Assembly (NCBI GenBank): GCA_026182355.1
Contig: JAPFBL010000034.1
Coordinates: 744,001-808,000 of the forward strand
Origin: Hermatobates lingyangjiaoensis
Lineage: Eukaryota > Arthropoda > Insecta > Hemiptera > Hermatobatidae
Length of the DNA: 64,000 nucleotides
Direction: 5' to 3'
Positions 375 through 61,885 of this stretch are shown here, piece after piece. Both the position numbers and the translations under genes were made by a program. Each line of letters starts with the position of its first letter. The first letter of the stretch is position 1. A model generated the notes under the pieces. The model saw only the letters and a program-made list of their open reading frames with translations. It was not told the DNA's origin and searched no databases.

Positions 375-545
375 CACAATATGAAATGGGAAAACAAGAC
401 TAAATTAATATTATTTATCAGTTGGGTTTTTGACTCTGACGAAGACTGCTTGTTATGGTTGAAAGATCTTAGTCTTGTTTTCCCATTTCATATTGTGGTT
501 TGATAATTGATTGCTATTTCACGTGTTTATGTGAAATCTTTTTAA
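375..545 (+). mobile_element. Penelope-like terminal foldback, AGAUCU family
   Basis: Inverted arms (CAATATGAAATGGGAAAACA on the left, its complement on the right) flank a hammerhead-like core. The right arm continues into a motif ending near CACGTGTTTATGTGAAATC, which is shared by the copies at 22045, 27635, 29030, 37785 and 44245. The left arm has lost its own ribozyme core. PLE assignment rests on the hammerhead association and on the linked PLE ORFs elsewhere in the window. Confidence 0.65.
436..470 (+). ncRNA. Hammerhead ribozyme-like motif (AGAUCU family)
   Basis: CUGACGA, then one A, a helix II (GACU/GGUU, weakened by G-U pairs), GAA, the self-complementary helix III AGAUCU, and U as the predicted cleavage-site H17. 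Helix I AGUC after the site pairs with GACU before the core. Activity has not been shown. Confidence 0.6.
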
Positions 546-571
546 TGATAATATATAAACACGTTCATATA

Positions 572-1022
572 CAGGTATTCCTCGTTTAACGACAATTCGG
601 AATAACAACGGGCCTTCCAACTGGGCAATATTCGTTTACTATAATTCTCACGGACTACATGAACGAAATTATTCAGTACGATAAGTTTTTAAACAATAAA
701 ACTAAAAGAAAATACAGAACAGTACATAGCTGAAGGGTAGCTGGGAGTTACTGAATTGTTTGGTACTAAAGTACTGCTAAGTATGTTGAGTCCAGTATTG
801 AACCTAAAACAGCCAAGGTTTTTAAAATTTTAAAATCAATGAAATTAATAAACAAAACTAATATAAATTTATTGATTATTTGAAAAAAAAAAAAAGAAAA
901 AAATAGTGTAGGGTATGCGAACTAACAGCTTCTTGACTGATACATGTACATTCGTTTAGCGACGATTTCGCTTAATGATGCGTCATTGGTCCGAATTAGT
1001 GTCGTTAAACGAGGAGTGCCTG
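572..1022. mobile_element. pogo/Tigger-type MITE
   Basis: A 451-bp non-autonomous DNA transposon with 22-bp terminal inverted repeats that differ at two positions (left CAGGTATTCCTCG..., right CAGGCACTCCTCG... read inward), each continuing CGTTTAACGAC. TA dinucleotides flank both ends (570-571 and 1023-1024), the Tc1/mariner/pogo target duplication. A CAGG start followed by CCTCGTTTAA is typical of Tigger-like ends. There is no transposase ORF. Bases 885-905 hold a poly-A run. Confidence 0.85.
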
Positions 1023-1194
1023 TATGTATTTTTCATATTAAGAGGTAAGTAAACCGTTATTCTTCGTGCTCTGGTGTTGGAATCAGTCGCTCGATCACTT
1101 TTACACGATCTAACACCAGTATACCAGTATGAAAGGGCGGTTAATTCATCTCTTAATACAGCTTACACAATCCAATGTGGTACTAACAATATAT

Positions 1195-1345
1195 ATATAT
1201 ATATAGTTCAAGGTACATAAAGAAACATAGCGAAATTGAAAACACAAACTTACAGTTACTAATTTTCGGTTTGAACCGTCTTCAGGAGAGATAAGAGTGG
1301 GAAAAAACCAAGCGCACTGGTACAGAGACGGTTGGAGACCCAATG
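1195..1345 (-). mobile_element. Penelope-like terminal fragment, AAUU family
   Basis: A solo arm in minus orientation with a hammerhead core at 1260-1285, preceded by the family's TCTCTTTTCTC-like pyrimidine run and followed by GTAAGTTTGTG. It abuts a (TA)n tract at 1191-1204. The ORF crossing it is a by-product of the repeat. Confidence 0.6.
1260..1285 (-). ncRNA. Hammerhead ribozyme-like motif (AAUU family)
   Basis: Minus strand: CUGAAGA, C, helix II GGUU/AACC (GGUUCAAACC), GAA, helix III AAUU, H17 = A. Helix I is weak here, with a G-C pair next to the site. Confidence 0.6.
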
Positions 1346-1734
1346 TTTTGAATCATATTCAAATTTGAAAATGTACCGGTAAATTCGCAAATTATTAAAT
1401 CCTCATATTAATGTTGATATATTTATGTATAACTTGAATGCATGATTTCATTAAAATAAGCAAAGACTGAGGTGTCAGTTATATTCCGATATGCTTGAAT
1501 GTGGCAGAGAAGCGCACGTGACTGAGATTCCTTCACAAATGGCCAACTAGTCTACCCAGCACATAGTCAGGAATGCGTAAGGATTCTGAAAGCTTTCTCA
1601 GCTTCAGCCAAAACAAAAAAAAATTACGCGTTCTTTATTTATTCTTAGGTTACATAACATCATTGTGTAGAGCTCTTGATAAAACATCTCCATTTCCTAC
1701 CTTCATATAAAAGAAGCTCATTTTTCATCCGGCA

Positions 1735-1865
1735 CCAATATAAATCACGGCTAAGCTACAGCCTTGGTCACCCATCCATGTGGCAACCACGCCCAATCTT
1801 CCTTCACTCTTATGTCTATATTCGCCGGTGTGTTCAAGATAACTTCAGCCACTGACCAATGTAAC
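1735..1865 (-). mobile_element. SINE-like repeat, copy 1
   Basis: Shares TGGCAACCACGCC (1781-1793) and the surrounding text (CACC-ATCCA before it, CCGGTGT and AAGATAACTTCAGCC after it) with 6440-6650. The minus-strand GGATGGGTGACC resembles the 5S rRNA box C region, so a 5S-derived SINE is possible but unproven. Confidence 0.4.
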
Positions 1866-3060: not shown

Positions 3061-3100
3061 GTGGTCAGTACTGCTATTCCACAGTTGTCGCAGATTAAAG

Positions 3101-5119: not shown

Positions 5120-5460
5120 ATTAGGGTAAAACAAAGGCTATGTAAAACATATGTCTTAATCATCAATTCTGTTCGGATGATCAGCATCATTCTAGTGTAC
5201 AACAAAGTTGTATAAAACACATGCCATAAACAACAAGTTTGGAAACAAAGGCTGTGTAAAACATATGTCTTAATCATCAATTCTGTTCGGATGATCAGCA
5301 CCATCCTAATGAACAACAAAGGTTGTATAAAACACACGCCATAGGCATCAATTTTTGAAACAAAGCTGTGTAAAACACATGTCTTAATCATCAATTCTTT
5401 TCGTATAATCAGCACCATCCTAATGTACAACAAAGTTTGTATAAAACACACGCCATAAAC
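5120..5460. repeat. About 117-bp tandem repeat, 3 units
   Basis: Units share GTGTAAAACATATGTCTTAA, TCATCAATTCTGTTCGGATG and GTATAAAACACACGCCATA. The repeat keeps one minus-strand frame open for 158 codons, giving a repetitive hydrophobic translation. This is a repeat artefact, not a gene. Confidence 0.85.
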
Positions 5461-8050: not shown

Positions 8051-8235
8051 TACAAATATATATGTGTTTCCTGCCGTTGTGTTTCCGGCGTGCTTGGTCG
8101 CCCATTCTCTTTTCTCCTGAAGACGGATCAACCGAAAATTTGAGTCTGTAAGTTTGTTTCTATACTTTCTGTGTTACTCGTCTTGAATTTTGAACTGGTA
8201 TTGTGTCCAGTTTGGATTGTGTTTCGTTTTATTAA
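8050..8235 (+). mobile_element. Penelope-like terminal fragment, AAUU family
   Basis: CCGGCGTGCTTGGTCGCCCA, then the pyrimidine run TTCTCTTTTCTC, the ribozyme core, and the conserved downstream text GTTACTCGTCTTGAATTTTG. The same order is seen at 22255 and in the inverted arms at 19291 and 21690. Confidence 0.7.
8117..8141 (+). ncRNA. Hammerhead ribozyme-like motif (AAUU family)
   Basis: CUGAAGA, C, helix II GG/CC with loop AUCAA (or CGG/CCG if the C pairs with G12), GAA, helix III AAUU, H17 = U. Helix I GAG (8142-8144) pairs with CUC (8114-8116). Confidence 0.7.
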
Positions 8236-8239: not shown

Positions 8240-8460
8240 AGATATATATATATACTCTCTCTGTAGTTAGTAGCTTACCTAGGGCGGCCGGCAAGTGCGT
8301 GCGTGTTCGTCGCATTCGACCTACCACTCAGTTAGCTTCAGCTACTCAAAGGGACTACTTCTGCTCGATGACGACGACTGTCGAAATATCGTTGTGAGTA
8401 TTTTGTGTGTGTCCTTATTTGTTTTTCTCTTTCCTGTGTGAACTATATATATATATATAT
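8240..8460 (+). mobile_element. Penelope-like terminal fragment, CCGAUGA variant family
   Basis: TTAGTAGCTTACCTAGG, GGCCGGC, TACCACTCAGTTAGCTTCAG and the hammerhead-like stretch at 8365-8390. Here the core reads UCGAUGA, helix II GAC/GUC and helix III AUAU with H17 = C. It ends in (TA)n at 8444-8461. The same text lies just 3' of the GIY-YIG ORF at 36923, which identifies the family as PLE. Confidence 0.7.
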
Positions 8461-8984: not shown

Positions 8985-9195
8985 TATTCACTAAAAATCG
9001 GATACCAATACAAGTTCAAAATCGAAGAAAAGTGACACACTGAGCAAAGAAACACACTTACAAACTCAAATTTTCCGGAACCAAATTTGACTCCCTTTCT
9101 CTTTCCTCCTGAAGACAGATTCCCCGAAAAGTTGAATTTCTAAGTGCGCTTCTTTAGTCTGTATGTTACTCTTCTTCAATTTTGAACTCATATTT
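8985..9195. mobile_element. AAUU-family PLE foldback, decayed
   Basis: The left arm (minus, to 9082) and right arm (plus, from 9090) share the family's CTTACAAACTCAAATTTTCC and complementary text. The right-arm core at 9109 is CUGAAGA but helix II is broken (AG opposite CC) and helix III reads AAGU. Confidence 0.6.
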
Positions 9196-9646
9196 TATAC
9201 ATATATTATCATTGCTTACATTATACACTAACTACGCGCTCCTCACTATTTAAATATAAGAATGAAAGGTCTTGAACTCTCTGTCGACCTAAAAGTCATT
9301 CACATGACCTAATAGTACTTACTTATACTGAAAAGCGCGGAAGATACTGAATGACTCCAGAGGATTGGCCTTAATTAATAACTATTTAAGCTGGTATCAT
9401 GACTACATTCTATGGTTTGGAGTTGGACCTGTGAAAGGTTTGTATACCAATAGAGTCAGTTTCCTTGAAATCACAGCTCCATGGGATGATTCAGAAGTTT
9501 TCAGTATTTCTCTGAATTACAATCTGTTTAAAGCCAGAAATATGTTTTTTACACGAGTAAAGTCAGAGACAAGAGTCCCATATTAAGTTAACAAAATCAA
9601 TAAAAACGAAGGTAGCACACAGATAGACAAAAGAATAACTCACTTC

Positions 9647-9672
9647 TATATTTCGACGATCGTCGTCATCAG
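9647..9672 (-). ncRNA. Hammerhead ribozyme-like motif (AUAU family)
   Basis: Minus strand: CUGAUGA, C, helix II GAC-GAUC-GUC, GAA, helix III AUAU, H17 = A. Helix I GAAG(U) pairs with (G)CUUC directly at the core. All three helices are present. Confidence 0.75.
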
Positions 9673-9737
9673 GAAGCCAAGAGTCCCACAGGACTCTTGC
9701 AGGCGCCGCCCTGCCTTCCTGCGGGACTCTTCGACTC

Positions 9738-9763
9738 CTGATGATGACGATCGTCGAAATATA
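9738..9763 (+). ncRNA. Hammerhead ribozyme-like motif (AUAU family)
   Basis: CUGAUGA, U, helix II GAC-GAUC-GUC, GAA, AUAU, H17 = A. The bases next to the core do not pair well in helix I. Only a more distal ACUC/GAGU match exists, so this arm is structurally poorer than its partner. Confidence 0.65.
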
Positions 9764-9829
9764 AAAGTGAGTTATTCCTTTATCTATCTGGGTGCTACCT
9801 TCGTATTAATTTGTTTTTATTTATAGTCC

Positions 9830-11671: not shown

Positions 11672-11821
11672 GTACGATGGCAGCAGGTCTTCCCGTAAGT
11701 ATATGTTATTAAAATAAGCAGCAGCTTCTGCATTTACCAATTTCTTGTTGACACTCTCTAGTTTTCTTATCACTTTGCAGTAAGACTCTGGTAGCTTCCA
11801 CAGAAGGTTATCGAAAGACAT
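11666..11821 (-). CDS. PLE-like ORF, N-terminal fragment
   Basis: The minus-strand ATG (11821-11819) starts MSFDNLLWKLPES, followed by KVIRKLESVNKKLVNAE and YFNNIYLREDLLPSYTN. The pattern of a Lys-rich helix, an aromatic, about ten residues, then LLP is what I associate with the start of Penelope-like polyproteins upstream of the reverse transcriptase. It is truncated by the (TA)n tract, where the frame degenerates to IYIYIY. An upstream in-frame ATG exists at 11833. A hammerhead-like motif lies 108 bp 5' of the start. Family call is from memory of the fold pattern, not a search. Confidence 0.5.
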
Positions 11822-12559: not shown

Positions 12560-12925
12560 GAAAATGTATATATATATATATATATGAAAGGTCCGTGTGG
12601 ACAATAAACACTTTAACACATAGAAAAGAACATAGAAAGACACTAACTAACTGCTGAGTAGCAGTTTGCTTCTCAACGCGAGTACTTCGCACTTCTTCCC
12701 GATGACGACGGATGTCGAAATATCGAACTGAGTTCTGTAGTGTCTTTCTGTGTTCTTTTCTATGTGTTAAAGTGTATATATATATAGTTAATACATTAAA
12801 GAGAAAAAACAAATAAAGATACACACAAAAGACTCACAACGATATTTCGACAGTCGTCGTCATCGGGTAGAAGTAGTCCCTTTGAGTAGCTGAAGCTAAC
12901 TCTCTCTCTCTCTATATATATATAT
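12560..12925. mobile_element. CCGAUGA-variant PLE fragments, two units
   Basis: The first unit (12590-12780) is a foldback with arms CACTTTAACACATAGAAAAG and complement, with a core at 12699-12724 on plus: CCGAUGA, C, GAC-GGAU-GUC, GAA, AUAU, H17 = C. Helix I is GAA/UUC. The second unit (12785-12920, minus) has a core at 12841-12866 with the same CCGAUGA. (TA)n tracts separate the units. Confidence 0.65.
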
Positions 12926-19195: not shown

Positions 19196-19370
19196 CACTT
19201 AAAATTCGAAAAAACGATCCAAACTGGACGCAAATCAGTTCATAGACGAAGAAAAGCAACACACAGAGAAAGAGACACACTTACAAACTCAAATTTTCGG
19301 GTGTTCCGTCTTCAGGAGAAAAGAGAGAATGGGCGACCAAGCACGCCGGAAACACAACGGCAGGAATATA
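19195..19370 (-). mobile_element. Penelope-like terminal fragment, AAUU family
   Basis: A solo minus arm bounded by (TA)n on both sides. Family text includes CGATCCAAACTGGACGCAA and CCAAGCACGCCGGAAACACA. Confidence 0.7.
19291..19315 (-). ncRNA. Hammerhead ribozyme-like motif (AAUU family)
   Basis: Minus: CUGAAGA, C, GG-AACAC-CC, GAA, AAUU, H17 = U. Helix I GAG/CUC is intact. Confidence 0.7.
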
Positions 19371-19404: not shown

Positions 19405-19725
19405 TATATATAGTTAACACATGAAAGAGAAAAAACAAATAAAGATACACACAAAAAACTCACAACGATATTTCGACAGTCGTCGTCATCGGGTAGAAGT
19501 AGTCCCTTTGAGTAGCTGAAGCTAACTGAGTGGTAGGCCGAATGCAAACGAACACGCACGCACTCTGCCGGCCGCCCTAGGTAAGCTACTAACTACAGAG
19601 AGTACTCAAAGGGACTACTTCTACCCGATGACGACGACTGTCGAAATATCGTTGTGAGTCTTTTGTGTGTATCTTTATTTGTTTTTTCTCTTTCATGTGT
19701 TAACTAGTAGTCCTGTTGGACCATT
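19405..19725. mobile_element. CCGAUGA-variant PLE foldback
   Basis: Inverted arms start at AACACATGAAAGAGAAAAAA and its complement. The hammerhead-like cores are at 19467-19492 (minus) and 19625-19650 (plus). Both read CCGAUGA, C, GAC-GACU-GUC, GAA, AUAU, H17 = C, with helix I GUUG/CUAC (one U-U mismatch). The centre holds GCCGGCCGCCCTAGGTAAGC. Confidence 0.75.
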
Positions 19726-20949: not shown

Positions 20950-21525
20950 TTAGACTTAAAATTCCCAATTTAAAATGATTCATTGAATGTATATAGTGTA
21001 GAAATTTGTTTAAAAGCATTGTATGACTAAAGTAACACATTTATTTGTCGTTAGTTTTATTTGATCACTGGCCAAGTAAATTAAATAGAAACTTATAACC
21101 CCTCACCCGGTATATTCAAAATAAACCCATACGATAATAAGTACAAATATTCATACTAGAATTATTTTAGAGAAAATAAAGAATCCTTTCCCCAAAAATT
21201 GTGATAAATATTCCAATTGTCCTAAAAATATTCCATTGGTCAGGTTTTTAAATAAATTATGATAAAAATTAATTAAATGGAATATAACGGTATGTGTATT
21301 ACAGTTATATAATCTTATTTGTTAAAATTATTCTATTCATACATTCTAATATTTTTTAAATATCATTGTGATTCATCAAAACCAAAATTACATTTTTCAG
21401 AACATCCAATGATGTCAAAATTTCCTCAAATCATCATTTAAAATTAATTATAATTAGTCGATTGACATCATTTGCGACCCTGAGGGAAGTGAAGCAGCCT
21501 ACTAATTACAAAGGTACTGGAGTAA
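20950..21525. other. AT-rich spacer
   Basis: No gene or family was recognised. Confidence 0.35.
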
Positions 21526-21645
21526 AGGTACTGACGAGGACGAAGACCGCTTGTTACGGTTGAAATATCTTAGTATTTTTTCCCTTTTTCATTTTCTAGT
21601 TTGATCATTAATTGTTATTTTACTTGTTTTTGTGATATTTTGTTA
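21525..21645 (+). mobile_element. AGAUCU-family PLE fragment, decayed
   Basis: GACGAAGACCGCTTGTTACG then GTTGAAATATCTTAG. The first two core bases (C3, U4) are replaced by GG and helix III is AUAUCU. It runs into (TA)n at 21648. Confidence 0.6.
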
Positions 21646-21688: not shown

Positions 21689-21797
21689 TATATATAAAGT
21701 TCACTTGATAAACGAAAGACCATCCAAACAGGACACAATAACAGTTCAAAATTGAAGATAGATAGCAAACAAAGCAAAGAAACACACTTACAAACTC

Positions 21798-21822
21798 AAA
21801 TTTTCGGGAAATCCGTCTTCAG
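21798..21822 (-). ncRNA. Hammerhead ribozyme-like motif (AAUU family)
   Basis: Minus: CUGAAGA, C, GG-AUUUC-CC, GAA, AAUU, H17 = U. Helix I GAG/CUC. Confidence 0.7.
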
Positions 21823-21908
21823 GAGAAAAGAGAAAGGGACACCAAGCACATTGTAATTTGCTTGGAGATTGTGTGCACAACGTGCTTGGTCTCTCTTTCT
21901 CTTTTCTC

Positions 21909-21933
21909 CTGAAGACGGATTGCCCGAAAATTT
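21909..21933 (+). ncRNA. Hammerhead ribozyme-like motif (AAUU family)
   Basis: Plus: CUGAAGA, C, GG-AUUGC-CC, GAA, AAUU, H17 = U. Helix I GAG/CUC. Confidence 0.7.
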
Positions 21934-22044
21934 GAGTTTGTAAGTGTATTTCTTTACTTTTTGTGCTACCTATCTTCAATTTTGAACTGTTATATATATA
22001 TAAGAACAGACTGAGTCCCGATAAACTTTAGTTTTGTCCATATA

Positions 22045-22230
22045 TATATATAATCAAACCACAATATGAAATGGGAAAACAAGACTAAGATCTTTCAAAC
22101 GTAACAAGCGGTCTTCGTCAGAGTCAAAAACCCAATTGGATCTTAGATTATAGTATTGTTTCCCTATTTCATATTGTGCTTTGATCATTGATTGTTATTT
22201 CAGTGTTTATGTGAAAGCTTTATATATATA
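22045..22230 (-). mobile_element. AGAUCU-family PLE foldback
   Basis: The left arm (minus) is intact. The right arm (22140-22225) keeps the outer text but has lost the ribozyme core. (TA)n lies on both sides. Confidence 0.7.
22087..22121 (-). ncRNA. Hammerhead ribozyme-like motif (AGAUCU family)
   Basis: Minus: CUGACGA, A, helix II GACCG/CGUUU region, GAA, helix III AGAUCU, H17 = U. Helix I AGUC/GACU is perfect. Confidence 0.7.
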
Positions 22231-22254: not shown

Positions 22255-22385
22255 AAACGGCAGGGTTTCCGGCGTGCTTGGTCGCCCATTCTCTTTTCTC
22301 CTGAAGACGGATCATCCGAAAATTTAAGTTTGTAAGTGTGTCTCTTTCTCTGTGTGTTGCTTTTCTTCATTTTAAACTGATATAT
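22255..22385 (+). mobile_element. AAUU-family PLE arm
   Basis: CCGGCGTGCTTGGTCGCCCA, the pyrimidine run and core as at 8050. It ends at (TA)n. Confidence 0.65.
22301..22325 (+). ncRNA. Hammerhead ribozyme-like motif (AAUU family)
   Basis: CUGAAGA, C, GG-AUCAU-CC, GAA, AAUU, H17 = U. Helix I has AAG instead of GAG, so the pair next to the site is lost. Confidence 0.65.
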
Positions 22386-24879: not shown

Positions 24880-25245
24880 GTGAATAGTGAGCTAACTTTA
24901 AGCTAACGTTTCGTCTCTATTTGTAGACATCTTCAGGGCGACATAAATAGATAAATTAATTACAAAAACATGAAAAAAACTTTATACTTACATTATTTAT
25001 ACGAATACACATAATTACCTTCGTATTTTTTTGTTACAACAAACATTTACAAGACCATAGTTTCTTTGCAATAAGAAAATACCAAGGTAATTATGTATAT
25101 TCATATAAATAATACAACCTTTAATTTTTTTTCATGTTACTGTAATTAATTTATGTATTGATGTAGTCTTCAAGATATCTACAAATATAGACGAAACTTT
25201 GGCTTAAAGGTATTTTACAGTTTAACGCTAGAACAAACTTTGATA
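24880..25245. mobile_element. ACGU-family PLE foldback with long arms
   Basis: Arms of about 130-150 bp are inverted around 25060 (for example TTATACGAATACACATAATT against AATTATGTATATTCATATAA). The left arm has an intact core. The right core (about 25163-25195) is decayed (CUUCAAGA, helix II UCUA/UAGA, GAA, ACUU). Confidence 0.7.
24905..24936 (-). ncRNA. Hammerhead ribozyme-like motif (ACGU family)
   Basis: Minus: CUGAAGA, U, helix II GUCU/AGAC (4 bp), GAA, ACGU, H17 = U. Helix I keeps two of three GGC/GCC pairs. Confidence 0.7.
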
Positions 25246-27635: not shown

Positions 27636-27716
27636 ATCTATATATAAAAATTTCACATAAACGCGCGAAATAACAATCAATGATCAAAGCACAATATGAA
27701 ATGGGAAAACAAGACT

Positions 27717-27751
27717 AAGATCTTTCAATCGTAACAAGCGGTCTTCGTCAG
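27717..27751 (-). ncRNA. Hammerhead ribozyme-like motif (AGAUCU family)
   Basis: Minus: CUGACGA, A, helix II GACCG/CGAUU, GAA, AGAUCU, H17 = U. Helix I AGUC/GACU. Confidence 0.7.
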
Positions 27752-27811
27752 AGTCAAAAATCCAACTGGTTGACTTCGTCAGAGTCAAAACAAACTCAGT
27801 TGGGTTTTTAA

Positions 27812-27846
27812 CTGACGAAGACCGTTTGTTATGGTTGAAAGATCTT
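27812..27846 (+). ncRNA. Hammerhead ribozyme-like motif (AGAUCU family)
   Basis: Plus: CUGACGA, A, GACCG/UGGUU, GAA, AGAUCU, H17 = U. The 5' side of helix I is changed (UUUAA before the core), so helix I is weak. Confidence 0.6.
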
Positions 27847-27864
27847 AGTCTTAATAATAAAGTA

Positions 27865-29030: not shown

Positions 29031-29220
29031 TAAAAAGATTTCACGTAAACACGTGAATTAAGAATCAATGATGAAACCACAATATGAAATGAGAAAACAA
29101 GACTAAGATCTTTCAACCGTAACAAGCAGTCTTCGTTAGAGTCAAAAACCCAACTATTTTGCTCCCAACTTCAAAAATCTTAGTCTTGTTTTTCCATTTC
29201 ATATTGTGGTTTGATCATGG
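29030..29220 (-). mobile_element. AGAUCU-family PLE foldback, decayed
   Basis: The minus core at 29105-29139 reads CUAACGA (G5 changed to A), which should abolish catalysis. Helix III AGAUCU is still intact. The right arm lacks the core. Confidence 0.65.
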
Positions 29221-35265: not shown

Positions 35266-35645
35266 TTGTAGGCCTATGAAACAGGTTTTTAAATAAAGAC
35301 CGAAGCGTTGGCAATGAGAGTTTAATTTGAACCTGAAGAACTGACCGAGTTCCGATAAACTTTAGTTTTCTATATACACATATACTTAAAATAAACTGTG
35401 ACACATAGAAAGAAACATAACAAACACTCACTTATCAATATTTCGACCGTTATGGCGGTCGTTCTCAGGAGAAGAAGTGAATTTAAGGAGGGACGACAGT
35501 CAACTCATATTTATATATATATATATATAAAAGTAAGAACTTATTATATATGTATATATAAAATTGATAAAAGTATCGACCGTGGAATAGAAACAAAACT
35601 ATAGTTTATCGGAACTCGGTCAGTCCCGATAAACTATAGTTTTGT
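35265..35645. mobile_element. Mixed PLE fragments (ACGU and AUAU families)
   Basis: 35270-35330: ACGU-family motif with decayed core (UAUGAAA, helix II GGUUU/AGACC, GAA, GCGU, helix I GGC/GCC). 35437-35468 (minus): CUGAGAA (G8 to A), C, perfect helix II GACCG/CGGUC, GAA, AUAU, H17 = U. 35340-35365 and 35590-35640 share CCGATAAACTATAGTTTTGT, the latter as a perfect inverted pair around CTCGGTCAG. Confidence 0.6.
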
Positions 35646-35689: not shown

Positions 35690-35935
35690 TTAAATTACAC
35701 AAAGCACGACACAGAAAAGAGAATGCAAAGAAAACTTACAGAATTCAATATTTCGAACTGTTGTTCGTCATCAGGAGAGTAGACTAGTAGAGAGGACGAA
35801 GTGAGAGAGATCTCCCCACGTCGAAGAACGGAGCGCGAATGAAGAAATAAAGAGTCAACCGAAGAGAGCAGCACTAGCGTAAAAAAGGAGCTAGGCACTA
35901 AACGTCGGATAACGGAGAAAGCAAAAACAATAGAT
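35690..35935 (-). mobile_element. AUAU-family PLE arm (GAAC/GUUC type)
   Basis: Minus arm with TCCTCTCTACTAGTCTACTC, the intact core and GAATTCTGTAAG. It matches both arms at 50735-51040. It starts at (TA)n (35655-35685). Confidence 0.7.
35747..35774 (-). ncRNA. Hammerhead ribozyme-like motif (AUAU family)
   Basis: Minus: CUGAUGA, C, helix II GAAC-AACA-GUUC, GAA, AUAU, H17 = U. Two helix I pairs (GA/UC) next to the site. Confidence 0.7.
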
Positions 35936-36295
35936 AAAATTATAAAATTAAAAATTATAAATTAAAAATTATAAAAAAGGAAATAATAAAATAAATAAAT
36001 AAATAAATAAAATAAAAAATATATATATAATAAAAAAAGGAAAAAAATAGTAAAATAAAAAAATATATATATGAATATATAAGTTAAAAATAAAAGGAAA
36101 AACAAATAAAAGTTAACGCTTCTGATTTAAACCGGGATCTGATCGGGCCCCTAATAACCATATGTGGGCCTCCTCAGACGCTCTTAATGTCAAACTACGG
36201 TCATCAGTGGTCACTAGCTTAATGATTTGAACAGAAAAGCAGTCATTAAAAGAAAGGTTATGTATATAAATATGTATATATATATATATATATAT

Positions 36296-36345: not shown

Positions 36346-36590
36346 TAAAAATTGTAAATTAATGTAAGTATTATAAAATGTAACTTGTAAATTAATAACA
36401 AGTATTAGATAAAAAGAGAAGTTAGTGTACAAATATGCGGAATACAAATACCACAAAGAAATCAATCAGAAAACTGGAAAATCTTTCCAAAAAATTAACA
36501 AAAGGGAAATAGGTGAGAAATTCTGACACCTATACTATTCAGACACACACACACACACACACACACAATATATATATATATATATAAGTT
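35935..36590. repeat. A-rich and (TA)n low-complexity region
   Basis: AAATAAATAAATA- and ATAAAAAAT-type runs at 35940-36110, (TA)n at 36270-36350 and (CA)n at 36541-36568. A GC-richer block at 36115-36235 may be a PLE remnant. No gene. Confidence 0.6.
36270..36350. repeat. (TA)n microsatellite
   Basis: An interrupted (TA)n of about 80 bp, one of the longest in the window. Others are at 8660-8720, 11638-11666, 21648-21697, 37213-37240 and 57470-57511. Confidence 0.95.
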
Positions 36591-36785
36591 AACACATGAA
36601 AGAGAAAAAACAAATAAAGATACACACAAAAGACTCACAACGATATTTCGCCAGTCGTCGTCATCGGGTAGAAGTAGTCCCTTTGAGTAGCTGAAGCTAA
36701 CTGAGTGGTAGGCCGAATGCAAACGAACACGCACGCACTCTGCCGGCCGACCTAGGTAAGCTACTAACTACAGAGAGAAAAATAA
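36590..36785 (-). mobile_element. PLE 3' terminal repeat, CCGAUGA variant
   Basis: The minus strand follows the GIY-YIG ORF. It contains TTAGTAGCTTACCTAGG, GCCGGC, CTACCACTCAGTTAGC and a hammerhead-like core at 36642-36667 (CCGAUGA, C, helix II GAC/GGC with one mismatch, GAA, AUAU, H17 = C). This is the key link between this family and PLE coding sequence. Confidence 0.75.
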
Positions 36786-36922: not shown

Positions 36923-37213
36923 TTAACGGTACAAGTTAAGGCCAGGAGGAGAGCGAGCTTTGAGAAGACAGATAATTGCCTCCTCTGAAGCTCTTAAAGT
37001 AACCCGAGAAGACGGAACAGGAATATGATTAAGGACTTGGACCCGGAAGCAGTGATTAAAATCCAGTCCATGGGAATTAGAGTGGATAGCAATAGGGAGG
37101 CTTTTGCGTTGACCAACGGAAGCCCTGTGACCATTCATACGTAAGTTGAGCTGCGTAGAGGCCATACCAACGTAGAATGCATCACACTGGGTGCAGTCCA
37201 AACGGTAAACGCA
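36923..37213 (-). pseudogene. Penelope-like GIY-YIG endonuclease, C-terminal fragment
   Basis: The minus frame reads VYRLDCTQCDAFYVGMAST (GIY-YIG motif as VYR...FYVG, with the PLE-type Cys pair), then LNLRMNGHRAS (catalytic Arg), SHGLDFNHCFRVQVLNH, ASEEAIICLLKARSPPGLNL and a stop. The ...E--I--L...P-GLN ending is the usual PLE C-terminus; the Glu would be the metal ligand. The reverse transcriptase part is missing because the frame is cut by (TA)n at 37215. A ribozyme-like terminal repeat follows 3'. Confidence 0.85.
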
Positions 37214-37239
37214 ATATATATATATATATATATATATAT

Positions 37240-37644: not shown

Positions 37645-37765
37645 TAATTAAGAAGCACACTTTCCAACTCAAATTTTCGGAAAACCCGTCTTCAGAAGAA
37701 AGTTTGTGTTGGTAGGTGTGTTTCATTACTCGGTGTGATACGCGTCTTCGATTTTGAATGTGTAT
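37645..37765 (-). mobile_element. AAUU-family PLE foldback remnant
   Basis: The minus arm is intact at the core. The right arm (37700-37765) keeps only the outer text (GTGTTTCATTACTCGGTGTG). Confidence 0.65.
37671..37695 (-). ncRNA. Hammerhead ribozyme-like motif (AAUU family)
   Basis: Minus: CUGAAGA, C, GG-GUUUU-CC, GAA, AAUU, H17 = U. Helix I GAG pairs with CUU (one G-U). Confidence 0.65.
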
Positions 37766-37852
37766 ATGCATATACATGTATACAAGATTTGACGTAAACA
37801 CGTGAAATAACAATTAATGATCAAACTACAATATCAAATAGGAAAAAAGAGT

Positions 37853-37887
37853 AAGATCTTTCAATCGTAACAAGCAGTCTTCGTCAG
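37853..37887 (-). ncRNA. Hammerhead ribozyme-like motif (AGAUCU family)
   Basis: Minus: CUGACGA, A, GACUG/CGAUU, GAA, AGAUCU, H17 = U. Helix II is weaker than in sister copies. Confidence 0.6.
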
Positions 37888-37903
37888 AGTTAGATTTTTG
37901 ACG

Positions 37904-37938
37904 CTGACGAAGACCGCTAGTTACGGTTGAAATATCTT
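37904..37938 (+). ncRNA. Hammerhead ribozyme-like motif (AGAUCU family)
   Basis: Plus: CUGACGA, A, GACCG/CGGUU, GAA, AUAUCU (one change breaks the palindrome), H17 = U. Confidence 0.55.
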
Positions 37939-38139
37939 AGTTTCATTTTTTTTTCTCATTTCATATTGTGGTTTGATCATAAATATATATATATATATAT
38001 ATATATATTTAATTCTACTTCTTTTATAGAAAAAATTCTAAAAAAAAAAACTGGACTAAAAATAGTCATATGATTCAATTAAACATGTTTCAATGATAGT
38101 CTTCTTCCAAAATATATGTATTTATTATATATCATTCAA

Positions 38140-39125: not shown

Positions 39126-39530
39126 ATTTTTGAATTCTAACGTAGTGCAATCAGTTAGCCAATACGAATCTAATGAAATAGTCGCCACATATAGAAATTT
39201 ATATATGTGGAGACTATTTCATTAGTGAAAAAGCTTGTTTTTGAATACTATCTTTGTTACAATTTATTTGTTAGTTGTTCATTTTTCTGAACAAACTAAT
39301 GGACAATGGATAAAATGGATAAACAAACAAAACGAAATTCTCCACACAAATAAAGTTTTAATCAACAGCAACGCGTTTCGAACACTCTGTGTTCATCATC
39401 AGGAAACACCAAGGAGGTAGTGCTGAAGGGTTGGTCCATTGAAAACAACTCACTTTTGTTTGTTTCTCCATTTTACCTCAGAATGTGTAAATACCACACA
39501 ATTACGGATTGCACAACTAATTTGTTCATT
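39125..39530 (-). mobile_element. ACGCGU-family PLE
   Basis: Contains a foldback CTAATGAAATAGTCGCCACA with its complement (39170-39230), the ribozyme-like core, and the outer end CAGAATGTGTAAATACCACA CAATTACGGATTGCAC. The same end occurs at 29480, 39890, 50230 and (inverted) 60045. Confidence 0.65.
39370..39402 (-). ncRNA. Hammerhead ribozyme-like motif (ACGCGU family)
   Basis: Minus: CUGAUGA, U, perfect 6-bp helix II GAACAC-AGA-GUGUUC, GAA, 6-nt palindrome ACGCGU, H17 = U. Helix I is weak next to the core. Confidence 0.65.
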
Positions 39531-43950: not shown

Positions 43951-44244
43951 AGGACAGGCATGGGCAATCTGCTGCCCGCGGGCCACATGTGGCCCAACAC
44001 GTGTATTTATGCAGCCCTGGGAGATTATCTGGAATTCTATCTTAATATTAAAAACTCTTTTGCTTTTTTCCTTCTTAACAAAAATAACGTATGACGCAAT
44101 AACATTTTGGAGTGACGCAATGACATTGTGTTGTTATAATTGTTTACCATAATGAAATATGATATGAATAAGAATTTTCATTATAAGGACAATAAAAAGT
44201 TAATTAATTATTGACACGTTAATATAGCACACAGTATGTATTTC

Positions 44245-44465
44245 TATAAAAGATTTCAGATAAACACGTGAAATAACAATCAAACCACAATAAGAAATGG
44301 GAAAAGAAGACTAAGATCTTTCAACCGTAACAAACGGTCTTCGTCAGAGTCAAAAACCCAACTGATGATTACGGTTGAAAGATCTTAGTCTTGTTTTCCC
44401 ATTTCATATTGTGGTTTGATCATTGATTGTTATTTCACGTGTTTATGTGAAATCTTTCTATATAT
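44245..44465. mobile_element. AGAUCU-family PLE foldback nested in hAT
   Basis: Arms from AAGATTTCAGATAAACACGT to CACGTGTTTATGTGAAATCT. The minus core is intact. The plus arm has lost the 5' side of helix II (CTGATGATTACGGTTGAAAG), apparently by recombination between arms. Confidence 0.75.
44313..44347 (-). ncRNA. Hammerhead ribozyme-like motif (AGAUCU family)
   Basis: Minus: CUGACGA, A, GACCG/CGGUU (5 bp with one G-U), GAA, AGAUCU, H17 = U. Helix I AGUC/GACU. Confidence 0.75.
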
Positions 44466-44599
44466 ATATAGAAATACATTATATATATATAAGCTGTATG
44501 TATCGAAATACCACAATAATTATCATGCGGCTCGCGGTCACTTAGAAATTAAATAATGCGGCCCCCAGTTCACAAAAGGTTGAACAAGCCTCGTGTAGG

Positions 44600-49999: not shown

Positions 50000-50275
50000 A
50001 GTTATCATGCATACCAGAGGTCCATCACAATGTCAATCGCGATCTACCAGTCGAACACCAAGGTATCACTGGTATTGAAAAAACCCTTGAGTGTTTTCAC
50101 TGGACCAACCCTTCAGCACCACATCCTTGGTGTCTTCCTGATGATGAACACAGAGTGTTCGAAACGCGTTGTTGTTGTTGAATAAAACTTCATTTGTGTG
50201 GAGACTTTTGTTTGTTTATCCATTCTACTTCAGAATGAGTAAATACCACACAATTACGGATTGCACAACTAATGA
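50000..50275 (+). mobile_element. ACGCGU-family PLE nested in hAT
   Basis: Contains CACTGGACCAACCCTTCAG, the ribozyme-like core, ATTTGTGTGGAGAC and the outer end CAGAATGAGTAAATACCACA CAATTACGGATTGCAC. Confidence 0.7.
50138..50170 (+). ncRNA. Hammerhead ribozyme-like motif (ACGCGU family)
   Basis: CUGAUGA, U, GAACAC-AGA-GUGUUC, GAA, ACGCGU, H17 = U. Helices II and III are perfect; helix I has one pair next to the site. Confidence 0.65.
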
Positions 50276-50818
50276 TTTAATGTGATATCAGTTTAATGTC
50301 CCATGCATTCTGTCTTTAATACTGATCGATAGCGTAGCGAGTTGACCATTAAAAATTTTTAATTTATTGAAGTTTGATTTTTTTATAATTTGTTTGAAAA
50401 GAAATTATAAAATATTGATAAAGAAAGTATTTTACAAAAAGGAAAAAACATTTTGTATTCTAATTCATGGAGTAAATGTAAAGTTATTCAACAGTTACAT
50501 TTATTAACTAAAAAGAAATATTTTTTTTTGAAAATTAACACAAGTCATAGAGTGGTTGCGAGGGGGTCATAGATGATAAGGAAAGTTCTCAGGGGTCCCT
50601 GAGAAAAAAGTTTTCAGGCTGAGATCCCTTACTGAGAGTTTCCGTCAATTCTACCGTTTTCTTTAGAACTAAAGCCATGTTTGCGTTCGACTGATTTCAT
50701 TTTCTTTCACTAAATTTAAGAAACGGTCCGCAAGGACTATAACACTTTAAATTACACAAAGAAAGAAAAAGAAAAAGGAATAAAAAGCACACTTATAGAG
50801 AATAAATATTGAATTCTC

Positions 50819-50846
50819 AATATTTCGAACTGTTGTTCGTCATCAG
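50819..50846 (-). ncRNA. Hammerhead ribozyme-like motif (AUAU family)
   Basis: Minus: CUGAUGA, C, GAAC-AACA-GUUC, GAA, AUAU, H17 = U. Helix I GAG/CUC is perfect. Confidence 0.75.
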
Positions 50847-50959
50847 GAGTAGACTAGAAGAGAGGATGAATTGAGAGAGATCACCCCACGTCGTGATTCG
50901 CGCTCCGTCCTTCGACGTGGAGAGATTTCTCTCACTTCATCCTCTCTTCTAGTCTACTC

Positions 50960-50987
50960 CTGATGACGAACAACGGTTCGAAATATC
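50960..50987 (+). ncRNA. Hammerhead ribozyme-like motif (AUAU family)
   Basis: Plus: CUGAUGA, C, GAAC-AACG-GUUC, GAA, AUAU, H17 = C. Helix I GAG/CUC is perfect. Confidence 0.75.
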
Positions 50988-51280
50988 GAGAATTCTGTAA
51001 GTGTACTTTTTATTCCTTTTTCTGTGTCATGCTTTTATGTAATTTTAAGTTCATTTTCTTTCTATCAAAGTAAACCTTGATTTCTAAAATGAAATGTTTA
51101 CAAAAAGAAAGAAACAATCTTGTTTAAACAATAAAAAAAAATTAAGATAAAAAAACCTTTTAGATTGCTGGTCATCCATGTAATAAATTGTCAATTTGAA
51201 CGGTCACTTATCGTCGATCACTATCAAAAAGGAAAGGCGAACTAAAAAAAGACTGATAAGCGGCTGGAGAAGACGACAAT

Positions 51281-57474: not shown

Positions 57475-57512
<38 letters not shown>

Positions 57513-59320
57513 TAAAGAAATTTTTTATTTGATAACTAAGTTGTAACAGAATGAAAATTGAAGATAAAAATTACATTCAATTTTTCCCCATATAATATTA
57601 AGATATTATATTTGAATAAATCTTAATTTTACACTAAAAATAAAAAATATTAAATTATAGCATATATAATATAGAAAAAGAAACACAAGTTTGTTAAATA
57701 AGAGGCTTTTTTTAGAAGTAATCTTTCTTTTTAAATTAAAATAATTAATATCAGTATATAATGAAGGAGTTTTCCATAAAAATTAACTTCATTTAAAATA
57801 AAATGTACTATATATATACATACGATGCAATATTAATAATAATTAAAGATAATTTATCACTGATCACTAAGAGTAAATAACCTGCTGAGGTTAGATCCAA
57901 ATTAGAGACTGCAATTATGTTTTTCTATACTGGTTACCCATAGTTTACTCTGAGACGTTTGTTTCTTTTGTAGATCGATTTTTTGATGAGAATATATATA
58001 TTTTATGATAACTAAACGAATGTGAGTGGGATTAGATTAGCACATTGTAACATATTACACTGTCTTACAGGCCTTAATGAAATATAAAAGATAAATTCTT
58101 TTTGGTTTTGAGATATACCCAATTGTTTTTGGAAATGTTAAACCAATGTAAAAGTATACCATCGTACTTTATATCAAAAAAGGTACCAAATGTTGACCAC
58201 ACTATTAATAATTCTAGAAATTTGTCATTTGATAATTAAAATTGCAATTAAATGAAAACAGAAGATAAAAATTACGTTATTTTTTTTAGACATAATATTA
58301 AAATATTATATTTTATACTAAAAATAAAAAATTACAAATATTATAGGAAATATAAAACAAAGTACCAAAATATGAACAAAAATTTGTTAAATAAGGTGCT
58401 TTTTTTTAGAAGTAATTTTTCTTTTTAAATGAAAATAATCCTTAAAAAAAATCAATATTAGTATATAACCCAGTAGATTTCCATAACCATTAACGCAATT
58501 TAAAATAAAATGTACTCTATATATTCATATGATGTAATAATAATAATCAAAGATAATTTATCATGAACCGCTGAGGGTAAAAAACCTGATGACGGTTAAA
58601 TTAAAAATTTGAGACTGCTAGTATGTTTTTCTATTTACTGGGCATCAATAGTTTACTTTGAGACGTTTGTTGTTTTTTTTTTGTAGATAGTTTTCTTGAT
58701 GAGAATATATATATTTTATGATGCCTAACGTATGAGCTGTTTGTAGATTCTCACATTTTGAAAATAATACAATATATTAAACTGTTTTACAGACCTGAAT
58801 GAAATGTAAAATGTAAATTCGTTTTGGTTTGGACATATTCCCAATTGTTTTGAAATATTGTAAACCACGTTAAAACACTGCCATCGTTATTCATATCAAA
58901 AGAGTTACCAAATTTTTCACACACAATTAATTATTCTAGAAAATTGTTATTTCATAATTATAATTGTAACAAAATGAAAATAGACGATAAAAATTATATT
59001 AACTTTTTTTTATACTTATTAAAGTATTATATTTGATTAAGAAATTATATTTTATACTCAAAGAAAAATATTAAAGCAAATATAATACAACAAAATACAA
59101 AATTAAAAAACAATTAATATGTTAAATAAGAGACTTTTTAAGAAATAATTTTTCCTTTTTATATAAATTATCTTTAAAAATAATTTATATAAGTATATAA
59201 TCAAGTAGTTTTCCAAACCATTAACATAATTTAAAATAAAATGTACTCTATATATTCATATGATGTAATATTAATAATAATCAAAGATAATTTATCATGA
59301 ATAACTGAATTTCTTTTTCA
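55640..59320. repeat. About 0.7-kb satellite, 5 units with hammerhead-like relics
   Basis: Landmark TATATTCATATGATGTAAT recurs at about 56435, 57215, 57815 (variant), 58517 and 59248, and CTTAATGAAATAT..TAAATTC recurs at about 55722, 56714, 58074 and 58798 (variant). Units span 580-800 bp because of indels. In four units CCTGATGACGGTTAAATC or a variant precedes AAAAATT, GAGACTGCAAGTATG: a decayed relative of the AAUU-family hammerhead. The ORFs are incidental. Confidence 0.8.
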
Positions 59321-60030
59321 CATGTATTATTCTCAGATTAAAACTAATAGTCTCTATTTATATTACATTTCTTGATATTTACTTTCATGTGTCCAAGAAA
59401 AATTGGAAATAATCTACATGATGACACTTACACAGTAATTGAATTAATAAATTTTCAATTTATTTATAAAAAGAAAAGCTGGACTCACTTGTTGAAAGTG
59501 AGTGGGCCACACTAAATGTTACTATAGGTAAGTAAGCCCATTATCAAAAATAATGAATAATCCATTAACTAACCGATTTAATATGGAAACTTTATTTTGC
59601 CATTTATAAAGAAAATGTAGTTTAAAGTTTTCTTTGAACAACTGGTGAACGCTTAGAAGGTGTGAATGAAGCTTAAGAAGTATGCCCTTCAATAACTAAC
59701 AGGTACTATTAGCATCAGTTTAATCTAAGCAAATCAAACATCGAATAATAACATCAGTCAATAAATCATAACAAATAAGTTAGATTTTTCACAACTCATT
59801 GAATTATATTATTAATTAAAATACTAAATGTTATTGAAAAATTATCGAAATCTTCTCATGAGGTATTAATGAATTGATTATATAGTCAATTTATTTTGAT
59901 TATAATTTAAAATAAATTATAAACACATAATAAATAAACTGCAAACATTATAAATATTTAATTTATTTCATAAAGTAAATAAAATATTTTAGATATTAAA
60001 TTAATATATAAAATATGAGTTATTTCTCTC
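59320..60030. other. Spacer with a family B 5' end remnant
   Basis: 59468-59535: GCTGGACTCAC..., GTGGGCCACACT, ACTATAGGTAAGTAA resembles the family B start with an insertion. The rest is AT-rich. Confidence 0.35.
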
Positions 60031-60130
60031 ATTAGTTGTGCAGTGTACAATTGTGTGGTATTTACTCATACTGGGGGGAAAACGAAAAGAAGCTCTTTTG
60101 TGTGGAGACTTTCAATTATCGTTTCCCAGG
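60030..60130. mobile_element. ACGCGU-family PLE outer end
   Basis: TTAGTTGTGCAGTGTACAAT, GTGTGGTATTTACTCATA (inverted relative to 50230), then TTGTGTGGAGACTTTC. It lacks a ribozyme core. Confidence 0.5.
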
Positions 60131-60305
60131 GTACGAATTACTTAATTGTTTCCCCAATTAAAATTACTTAATTACTTATTCTGAAATATAAAATTGTTTC
60201 TAATAAATTACTTATATTGAACAGAATGTTATAAGATTAATGTAAACAAAGCCGTCAAATGAATACTGTTGGAACTTGATAATAGTCAGTGTGCTATATA
60301 AAAAA

Positions 60306-61570
60306 AAATCGGGAGTAGCCTGCACTCAACTTTACTATAAGTAAACTTAATATCAATGTTCTTGGGTATATAATATATAATGTCCCATTTAAGAATAATG
60401 TAAACATTTAAATGGGAGATGCTTATTAGTCTTTCATTTCTGAGGTAGTACAGATAGTGATTGATGGACTTATCAATATATAAGCTTATTTTTGAACATC
60501 CCACAGCTGATCCAAATAACCTCATTGGTATAACTACAGCAGTAATAACATTAACATAAAACCTAAGTGAAAATTTATTGATACGAAATAATCTCCTACA
60601 AGAGAACATGGCGTTTGTTCAAGTAGTTAGTGGATTTCTTATATCAGTTACATTTATAGTTGGGAGCTTCTAAATTTTGAAAAGAATAAATATGAACTAT
60701 TTGACTAGAATAGTCTAATTTTATCTCAGTGGTTTTGCTCAAAAAATTTCTAAGTCAATGTAAACATTGTAAAATAATATCAAAAATTCGACAAGTATAA
60801 CAGGTGATCCTTTAGTCTAGAATAAACAAACAGTTTCTATAGCTTTATTGCTCTTTCCCGTAATTGAAACTTCATGAATATTTTTTGTTCCATTCATGGT
60901 CAAATTTTCATGAGTTTTTAATGAGCCGTTTAGCGTCAAAAAAACATTTTTTGAAAACAGAAATCGTACTTTAACGCCCCTTTGGTGGATATAATTTTGA
61001 AAAAAATATCTCAACTCATTCTCCACATAATGTTCTATTTGTAGGCATAGTTTCATTTTGATCCGTCAAACAGTATGGCTTGTATCGCTCTTACAAGGTT
61101 TGAGATTGAATTATAAGTCAAAATTTTTACATTTTATTGAAAAAAAAAATATATCCTGTTGTTTTAAAATTCTGAAAATATTTTTCGTTTGTTCCATTTG
61201 TAACCTCAAAGATAATGTCAAAATTTCAAAACTCTAGGGTTATCAGTTTAAGAGAAATAAATGTTTTAAAAAAAACGGTTTTTGGCAAAAAAAGTGACTT
61301 TCCCATCATGCATAATTCTTCTCAAACAATAGGGATCTTCTTCCCTATGAGGCCCATTTTTGTGTAAAATATCAACTTGATCTATCAAAGATTCTGGACC
61401 GTAGCAAGCAATGCTAACACACTCACCCACCCACCCACACACACACACACACAGACATCATCGAGAAAACTTCATAAAACGACTTCAGGGACCTCAAAAC
61501 ATGTAATTCTGTCAAAATCTCGAGATCGAATTTTTTCACGATCACTATACTTTACTTATAGTAAAATAAA
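60306..61570 (+). mobile_element. Family B element, 1.26-kb copy
   Basis: It starts CGGGAGTAGCCTGCACTCAA with ACTTTACTATAAGTAAA (60329-60345) and ends TTTACTTATAGTAAAAT (61551-61567). The two ends are inverted. It is colinear with 13643-15292, with some segments missing. (CA)n at 61436-61453. No conserved ORF. Confidence 0.7.
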
Positions 61571-61639
61571 AAATACTAATACAAAATTTGACATTTTTAT
61601 AGTATATTATTGATTAATTATTTTGATTAATGATGGGAA

Positions 61640-61885
61640 ATTTCCAAAATTACGTCTCTACATAAAAAAGAGCTTTATTTCAAAACTAACCATGCATTTT
61701 GAACACTTAATGTTCTTCTTCAGGTTTACCTCTGTACTGTCAAAGATGTCATCGCAACAGGGACCGTTGTGATAAATGCAGGCCCTGTTGCGATAACACC
61801 CTCAACAGTAAAGATGTGAACCTGAAGAAGAACACTAAGTGTTCGAAACCGTTGTCTCCTAAAGTCTCTATAGGAGGTGATGAGA
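61640..61885. mobile_element. ACGCGU-related PLE foldback
   Basis: Inverted arms around 61770 (GGGACCGTTGTGATAAATGC... CCCTGTTGCGATAACACC). The minus core at 61691-61723 is CUGAAGA, A, GAACAUUAAGUGUUC, AAA (G12 lost), AUGCAU, G. The plus core is better kept. Confidence 0.65.
61822..61853 (+). ncRNA. Hammerhead ribozyme-like motif (ACGCGU-related)
   Basis: CUGAAGA, A, perfect helix II GAACAC-UAA-GUGUUC, GAA, then ACCGU, U: one base lost from the usual palindrome. Confidence 0.55.

What the first reader, a model, noticed from the sequence alone, without database searches (positions are those of the whole stretch)
436..61853. About two dozen hammerhead ribozyme-like motifs with intact cores in one 64-kb window
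Twenty-four sites have CUGANGA, a hairpin, GAA, a short A...U helix III and H17, in at least six unrelated sequence families. The independent recurrence of the same order, with different helices, is hard to explain by chance. Hammerheads in Penelope-like elements are established in the literature; the density and diversity here are what stands out.
Basis: partly seen in the sequence, partly recalled or inferred. Interest (0 to 1): 0.9.

Follow-up and report, generated by a model that had tools for sequence, protein, structure and literature searches.

The report
Minimal hammerhead ribozymes in Penelope repeats
This stretch of eukaryotic DNA holds about two dozen small motifs that look like self-cleaving RNAs (hammerhead ribozymes), most likely leftover ends of Penelope-like jumping genes, where such ribozymes are already known to occur.

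Summary
CTGANGA..GAAA occurs 35 times against 4.0 expected. A descriptor with exact core, stem II, self-complementary helix III and H17 finds 19 sites against 0.02 per shuffle; with stem I of at least 3 bp, 8 against 0 in 60 shuffles. Of 32 core matches 26 fall into seven repeat families, and helix III is a perfect palindrome at 25 of 32 (background 12.6%). Stem I pairs better within than between families (with unselected copies the excess is weaker). Rfam's hammerhead models do not detect them.

The motifs sit in short repeats, often as head-to-head inverted pairs. A further family (G, damaged core) lies between two remnants of a GIY-YIG-like endonuclease on the same strand. That is the published anatomy of pseudo-LTRs of Penelope-like elements, whose minimal type I, probably dimeric, hammerheads are known. 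"Unrelated" and "intact" are overstated: B and G are homologous, and contiguous stem I survives at 8 exact-core sites. Two side observations deserve follow-up: a splice-donor-like GTRAGT 3-9 nt after the predicted cut in five families, and a U4C core change in all copies of the youngest family. Activity is untested.

The parts
424..482 (+). Family E hammerhead-like motif (C3 at 436), complete by the strict descriptor
22075..22133 (-). Family E motif (C3 at 22121), complete
44301..44359 (-). Family E motif (C3 at 44347), complete; single-strand fold contains stem I, outer GGG/CCC and stem II
27705..27763 (-). Family E motif (C3 at 27751), stem I intact, stem II weakened
27800..27858 (+). Family E motif (C3 at 27812), stem I lost
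29093..29151 (-). Family E motif with G5 to A core change (CTAACGA)
37841..37899 (-). Family E motif (C3 at 37887), weakened stems
37892..37950 (+). Family E motif (C3 at 37904)
21519..21575 (+). Family E motif, diverged (C3 at 21531)
44350..44398 (+). Family E arm with core but shortened stem II (C3 at 44362)
21790..21830 (-). Family A motif (C3 at 21822), complete
37663..37703 (-). Family A motif (C3 at 37695), complete
8109..8149 (+). Family A motif (C3 at 8117)
9101..9141 (+). Family A motif (C3 at 9109), helix III not palindromic
1252..1293 (-). Family A motif (C3 at 1285)
19283..19323 (-). Family A motif (C3 at 19315)
21901..21941 (+). Family A motif (C3 at 21909)
22293..22333 (+). Family A motif (C3 at 22301)
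9640..9680 (-). Family B motif (C3 at 9672), complete, stem I 5 bp
9730..9771 (+). Family B motif (C3 at 9738), stem I lost
50812..50854 (-). Family D motif (C3 at 50846), complete
50952..50995 (+). Family D motif (C3 at 50960), complete
35740..35782 (-). Family D motif (C3 at 35774), stem I 2 bp
39362..39410 (-). Family C motif (C3 at 39402), helix III ACGCGT
50130..50178 (+). Family C motif (C3 at 50138)
24898..24944 (-). Family I motif (C3 at 24936), helix III ACGT, no stem I found
61814..61862 (+). Family F motif (C3 at 61822), helix III not palindromic
12691..12733 (+). Family G motif, diverged subfamily, core CCGATGA (U4 to C)
12832..12874 (-). Family G motif, core CCGATGA
19458..19500 (-). 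Family G motif, core CCGATGA
19617..19659 (+). Family G motif, core CCGATGA
36633..36675 (-). Family G motif (first core base 36667), core CCGATGA, between two endonuclease remnants
8357..8399 (+). Family G motif, core TCGATGA (two core changes)
35432..35476 (-). Family H motif, core CTGAGAA (G8 to A)
9593..9817 (.). Head-to-head palindrome of family B
21738..21993 (.). Head-to-head palindrome of family A
50744..51050 (.). Head-to-head palindrome of family D
44239..44468 (.). Head-to-head palindrome of family E
27711..27852 (.). Head-to-head pair of family E
37813..37984 (.). Head-to-head pair of family E
19411..19706 (.). Head-to-head pair of family G, arms 99% alike
61697..61848 (.). Palindrome of family F, one arm with exact motif
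24893..25212 (.). Palindrome of family I, second arm decayed
36926..37216 (-). GIY-YIG-like endonuclease remnant ending in a stop
   Evidence: Pfam GIY-YIG 16.1 bits, E 0.014, below cut-off 22.6
36116..36256 (-). C-terminal endonuclease remnant, alike to the former (54% over 56 aa, 36116-36283)
36575..36775 (-). G-family pseudo-LTR-like repeat between the two endonuclease remnants

Best explanation
The motifs are minimal type I hammerhead ribozymes, intact or decayed, carried in the pseudo-LTRs of several Penelope-like retroelement families in a eukaryotic (probably animal) genome. Each complete copy has stem I - CUGANGA - usually one extra nucleotide - stem II - GAA - a self-complementary helix III of 4 or 6 nt - H17 - stem I'. 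Helix III is a palindrome too short to close its own loop well, so two copies, in one transcript or in two, would share helix III and cleave after H17 as a double hammerhead. Penelope insertions often carry an inverted, variably truncated pseudo-LTR at the 5' end; this gives the head-to-head palindromes and doubles the motif count per insertion. Shown: the pattern, its excess over chance, stem I and II pairing in the complete copies, helix III palindromy, the head-to-head pairs, endonuclease remnants beside a G repeat. Inferred: cleavage and dimerisation, the retrotransposition route, Penelope origin of families other than G.
For: Excess over shuffles. Helix III palindrome at 25 of 32 core matches against 12.6% of GAAA sites, and in six of seven families. 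Stem I pairing within against between nine families: 27 of 36 against 19.1, P 0.0027 (best copy chosen for some families); with a random copy per family 23.9 of 36 against 17.5, swapped at least as good in 2.2%. E44347 folds on its own with stem I and stem II. Seven head-to-head pairs within 150 nt. Two GIY-YIG-like remnants flank a G repeat on one strand. Published: minimal type I hammerheads without helix III in Penelope-like elements, dispersed or in pseudo-LTRs, possibly dimeric (passages in PMC7761336, PMC7229834, PMC6155905, PMC6466107); inverted head-to-head pseudo-LTRs with palindromic junctions and AT-rich targets (PMC3846280).
Against: No Rfam hammerhead hit. The endonuclease remnant is below Pfam's cut-off and no homologue was found. 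No reverse transcriptase was seen, though only 14 stretches were put to Pfam. Only family G, whose core is damaged, is physically beside the endonuclease remnants with its own copy; A, E and others are merely nearby. Families C and I show little or no stem I. Most complete copies carry an extra nucleotide at the foot of stem II, whose effect is unknown to me. The palindromes would fold as long hairpins that bury the ribozyme.
Confidence: 0.82

Rival explanations
1. The repeats are palindromic MITE-type DNA transposons or foldback elements, and the hammerhead-like motif is a passenger or a by-product of their inverted repeats.
For: Short non-coding repeats, strong palindromes, TA-rich insertion sites. 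E copies align better with the corresponding stretch of other loci (83.7-87.6% in four comparisons) than arm with arm inside 44239-44468 (79.0%), so some palindromes may move as a unit.
Against: Inverted arms end at different points in different E loci; solo single-arm A repeats exist; a G repeat sits in ORF-then-pseudo-LTR order beside endonuclease remnants; palindromy does not explain a hammerhead core, stem pairing and H17 in several families.
Confidence: 0.1
2. The motifs are now mostly dead: relics that no longer cleave, kept only as old repeats.
For: 26 of 32 core matches are in families but only 8 keep exact core, stem II, palindromic helix III and stem I of 3 bp; all six G copies, H and two further copies have core changes; long hairpins would compete.
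Against: Eight copies in four families keep all parts tested. This rival concerns present activity and is compatible with the main explanation.
Confidence: 0.45
3. The conservation is that of a coding exon (Pro-Asp/Glu-Asp/Glu...), not of an RNA structure.
For: Many copies read as PDDDD.. or PEDG.. and are followed by a splice-donor-like GTRAGT.
Against: The distance from CTGANGA to GAAA is 10, 11, 13, 16, 17 or 18 nt in different families, so GAAA falls in different frames; helix III palindromy and stem pairing are not expected from coding.
Confidence: 0.04
4. Chance in an AT-rich, repeat-rich sequence.
For: Short motif; copies in a family are not independent.
Against: the pattern recurs in at least six families with different letters in helix III and stems.
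Confidence: 0.01

Closest known systems
Minimal type I hammerheads of Penelope-like elements (Cervera and de la Pena 2014; Lunse, Weinberg and Breaker 2017; primary papers not held, known here through passages of citing papers and recall)
   Same: CUGANGA..GAA core, type I order, diminished helix III suited to dimers, in dispersed repeats and pseudo-LTRs
   Different: Nothing shown to differ; the extra base at the foot of stem II could not be compared with their consensus. The splice-donor-like GTRAGT after the cut is not mentioned in the passages that I read
Poseidon element of Anolis carolinensis and its hammerhead (PMC11167929, passages read)
   Same: Hammerhead at the junction of pseudo-LTR and ORF; [quoted passage not shown]
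   Different: That one was tested and cuts only with the element's protein; here nothing was tested and no ORF survives
Penelope elements of the rotifer Adineta vaga (PMC3846280, passages and the Discussion read)
   Same: Inverted, shorter pseudo-LTR at the 5' end, head-to-head palindromic junctions, solo pseudo-LTRs, AT-rich targets
   Different: Sequences unrelated as far as I know; target-site duplications not tested here; that paper does not contain the word hammerhead (listing)
Animal retrozymes (PMC7229834, passages read)
   Same: Short non-autonomous repeats with type I hammerheads; amphibian forms with weak helix III and a palindromic tetraloop
   Different: Retrozymes are tandem repeats with canonical loop contacts; no tandem array overlaps a family motif here

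Membership tests
Hammerhead ribozyme, minimal type I as in Penelope-like elements | Core CUGANGA and GAA with H17 not G | tested here: met
   26 family sites with exact CTGANGA..GAAA; families G and H have a core change
Hammerhead ribozyme, minimal type I as in Penelope-like elements | Stem II hairpin between the two core strands | tested here: met
   Part of the strict descriptor: 19 sites against 0.02; usually with one extra 5' nucleotide
Hammerhead ribozyme, minimal type I as in Penelope-like elements | Stem I closing the motif | tested here: met
   8 exact-core sites with 3 bp or more; within-family excess; not seen in families C and I
Hammerhead ribozyme, minimal type I as in Penelope-like elements | Diminished, self-complementary helix III | tested here: met
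   25 of 32 against 12.6% background
Hammerhead ribozyme, minimal type I as in Penelope-like elements | Self-cleavage after H17, as dimer | not testable with these tools
   Needs in vitro cleavage
Rfam hammerhead families | Score at or above gathering threshold | tested here: not met
Penelope-like element | GIY-YIG endonuclease | tested here: inconclusive
   Two alike remnants; Pfam GIY-YIG 16.1 bits against cut-off 22.6
Penelope-like element | Penelope-type reverse transcriptase ORF | tested here: inconclusive
   None seen; 14 stretches put to Pfam and a crude motif search; not a full search
Penelope-like element | Pseudo-LTRs, direct and inverted, head-to-head | tested here: met
   Seven head-to-head pairs; ORF end followed by a G repeat in the same orientation
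Penelope-like element | Target-site duplications | not tested
   Ends lie in TA repeats, which makes them hard to define
Metazoan retrozyme | Tandem repeats of about 170-400 bp with type I hammerhead | tested here: not met
   No row overlaps a family motif

The most novel reading that the evidence does not exclude
In these Penelope families hammerhead and 5' splice site are overlaid: the predicted cut lies 3-9 nt upstream of GTRAGT, so ribozyme folding and U1 pairing exclude each other and the element chooses between cutting its transcript and splicing it. In the most recently spread family (G) the catalytic core was lost (U4C in all six copies) while the donor stayed in five of six, which would mean that catalysis is not needed for mobility.
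Probability: 0.12. Interest if true: 0.6.

Novelty: new member of a known kind. Interest (0 to 1): 0.32.

Why it matters
It is a TE-rich eukaryotic region in which several Penelope-type hammerhead families can be compared within 64 kb. A review calls the role of these minimal hammerheads in the elements still a mystery (PMC7761336, passage). Two observations make that more testable: the fixed offset between the predicted cut and a splice-donor-like GTRAGT within families, and a core substitution shared by all copies of the youngest family, which speaks against a strict need for catalysis in mobility.

Tried and rejected
Tried without result: Rfam at gathering and at E<=10 and on four short stretches; one protein search with the endonuclease remnant (1 candidate, none at E<=0.001); exact-pattern scans of three family motifs in viral contigs (each) and of one in prokaryote genome contigs. 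So no relatives from elsewhere were obtained and the host is unidentified. A MAFFT alignment of 20 motifs misaligned stem II across families, so I built no covariance model and counted pairs by script.

Considered and rejected: chance; retrozyme-like tandem array; coding constraint (spacing differs between families); microRNA genes (the low-scoring miRNA rows over 21828-21903, 50843-50964 and 61703-61842 are the palindromes). Left open: whether each palindrome is made afresh. In family G the two arms are no more alike (99.0%) than the truncated arm is to the copy at 36667 (99.0%); the E comparison is given under the first rival.

Full report
WHAT WAS CHECKED. The core pattern CTGANGA..GAAA is strongly over-represented: 35 matches on both strands against 4.00 expected, at most 9 in 100 shuffles. 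With a spacer limit of 24 there are 32 matches. From the sequences, self-comparison and the inverted-repeat search I assign 26 of 32 to seven families: A (8 sites), B (2), C (2), D (3), E (9), F (1), I (1); F and I are single palindromes. Six of 32 are unassigned. Two more families with one core change, G and H, came out of the relaxed scan and the translations.

STRUCTURE. Read by eye and then by script, the sites have stem I, CUGANGA, usually one extra nucleotide, stem II, GAA, a helix III from A15.1 to U16.1, H17, and stem I'. A scan that asks for exact core, stem II of at least 3 bp, a perfectly self-complementary helix III of 4, 6 or 8 nt and H17 other than G finds 19 sites against a mean of 0.02 in 60 dinucleotide shuffles (max 1); with stem I of at least 3 contiguous pairs 8 sites against none (an earlier form also gave 8, against 0.025 in 40 shuffles). 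One of the 19 (43004) is not in any family and looks like chance. The 8 are 436, 22121, 44347 (E), 9672 (B), 21822 and 37695 (A), 50846 and 50960 (D). The descriptor was written after seeing the sites. Helix III palindromy was tested without selecting for it: 25 of 32 core matches against 143 of 1135 GAAA sites; copies in a family are related, so the fairer count is six of seven families (all but F). Stem I: with one representative for each of nine families, 27 of 36 positions pair within a family against 19.1 when strands are swapped between families, P 0.0027, contiguous runs P 0.0088. For some families I had taken the better copy; with a random copy per family it is 23.9 of 36 against 17.5, and swapping did at least as well in 2.2% of draws. 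Over 34 copies, 90 of 136 positions pair. The minimum-energy fold of E44347 alone contains stem I, an outer extension and stem II; the folds of single B9672, D50960 and A21822 stretches do not show the full hammerhead, and the computed homodimers do not show the double hammerhead either.

RFAM. Rfam has no hit at gathering threshold, no hammerhead family among 24 rows at E<=10, and nothing relevant in four short stretches holding good copies (the one Hammerhead_3 row, 11.4 bits against 48.5, is a neighbouring hairpin). I give the shuffle and pairing tests more weight, but the result stands as told.

ARRANGEMENT. Seven pairs of motifs lie head-to-head within 150 nt: 9672/9738, 19492/19625, 21822/21909, 27751/27812, 37887/37904, 44347/44362, 50846/50960. 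I noted one tail-to-tail pair, 12699/12866, 167 nt apart; I did not count such pairs systematically. Five palindromes folded as whole transcripts give long hairpins of -83 to -163 kcal/mol, which would bury the ribozyme; this also explains microRNA rows. In family E the inverted arm ends at different points in different loci, while homology among the direct copies starts about 15 nt before the core in five of six loci (by eye). Solo A repeats (8117, 19315, 22301) share sequence upstream and lie in TA-rich DNA.

WHAT CARRIES THEM. There are 6 stretches of 120 aa or more between stops and no Pfam hit at its cut-off in 14 distinct stretches tested. On the minus strand at 36926-37216 lies a peptide with a C..C...YVG pattern that I recognise, from recall, as a Penelope GIY-YIG endonuclease; Pfam GIY-YIG gives 16.1 bits, E 0.014, below its cut-off of 22.6. 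A second C-terminal remnant at 36116-36283 is 54% identical over 56 aa, E 3e-13. Between them, in the same orientation, is a G-family repeat (36575-36775) with its motif at 36667. Endonuclease end, then repeat, is the order ORF then pseudo-LTR of Penelope-like elements. No reverse transcriptase was seen; the search for it was shallow.

COMPARISON WITH WHAT IS KNOWN. Passages read in PMC7761336, PMC7229834 and PMC6155905 say that Penelope-like elements and Terminons carry minimal type I hammerheads lacking helix III, that thousands lie dispersed in non-coding DNA, that some map to pseudo-LTRs, and that they may act as dimers; PMC6466107 (passages) cites Lunse et al. for double hammerheads in Penelope-like retrotransposons. 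The two primary papers are not held, so I could not compare the extra base at the foot of stem II with their consensus. PMC3846280 (passages and the whole Discussion) describes inverted, shorter 5' pseudo-LTRs, head-to-head palindromic junctions, solo pseudo-LTRs and AT-rich targets. PMC11167929 (passages) shows a Penelope-type hammerhead that cuts only with the element's protein in vitro and whose mutants still insert. The window fits that picture, so I file it as a new member of a known kind.

The families are not shown to be independent. B and G share 76-78% identity around the motif, and A, B, D, G and H share a motif followed by GTRAGT. Intact holds for 8 sites by the stem I criterion. 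Density is partly an effect of head-to-head doubling.

OPEN POINTS WORTH A LOOK. First, GTRAGT occurs within 30 nt after GAAA at 11 of 32 sites against 28 of 1135 GAAA in general: offset 10 in six of eight A sites, 7 in both B sites, 11 and 13 in two of three D sites, and 0 at the unassigned 37461; none in C, E, F, I. In G (offset 7, five of six copies) and H (offset 9) I read it. The predicted cut is 3-9 nt upstream, and in B9672 the fourth and fifth pairs of stem I use the first two bases of GTGAGT. I found no acceptor and have no transcript data; relatedness of these families may explain the shared feature. The listings showed no paper on such an overlap, but most primary literature on these ribozymes is not held. 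That some Penelope elements have an intron near the 5' end is recalled. Second, family G is the youngest here: four copies are 97-99% alike, one is at 92-94%, one is a subfamily at 77-78%, against 78-88% for most A, D and E comparisons (up to 94% for one E pair). All six have C instead of U at core position 4, one also a changed C3. That U4 changes impair hammerheads is recalled, not tested. If so, the lineage kept spreading without an active ribozyme, in line with the insertion result of PMC11167929.

VERDICT. Observation confirmed; interpretation partly supported; ordinary in kind, with two side observations that merit a genome-wide test.

Noticed in passing
families A, B, D, G, H, e.g. 21790-21830 (-), 9640-9680 (-), 50952-50995 (+): Splice-donor-like GTRAGT 3-9 nt after the predicted cut, partly inside stem I.
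   Followed up: partly
8365 (+), 12699 (+), 12866 (-), 19492 (-), 19625 (+), 36667 (-): All six copies of the youngest family G carry C at core position 4.
   Followed up: partly
42803-43258 (+) and 47119-47592 (+): Possible LINE C-terminal remnant: zf-RVT at 12.9 bits, below cut-off, in the first; the second ORF reads like the same element on the other strand, by eye.
   Followed up: no
49918-50178 (+): By eye the translation resembles a retroviral-type integrase zinc-binding end, just upstream of the family C motif at 50138; Pfam found nothing.
   Followed up: no
11695-11887 and 12287-12479: Long inverted repeat, arms 193 nt, 94% complementary, 399 nt apart: another MITE-like element.
   Followed up: no
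16718-17245, 25504-25908, 30794-31353, 5129-5468: Tandem arrays with periods of about 200, 31, 94 and 114 bp.
   Followed up: no
56001-60000: GC drops to 21.6% against about 30-35% elsewhere.
   Followed up: no
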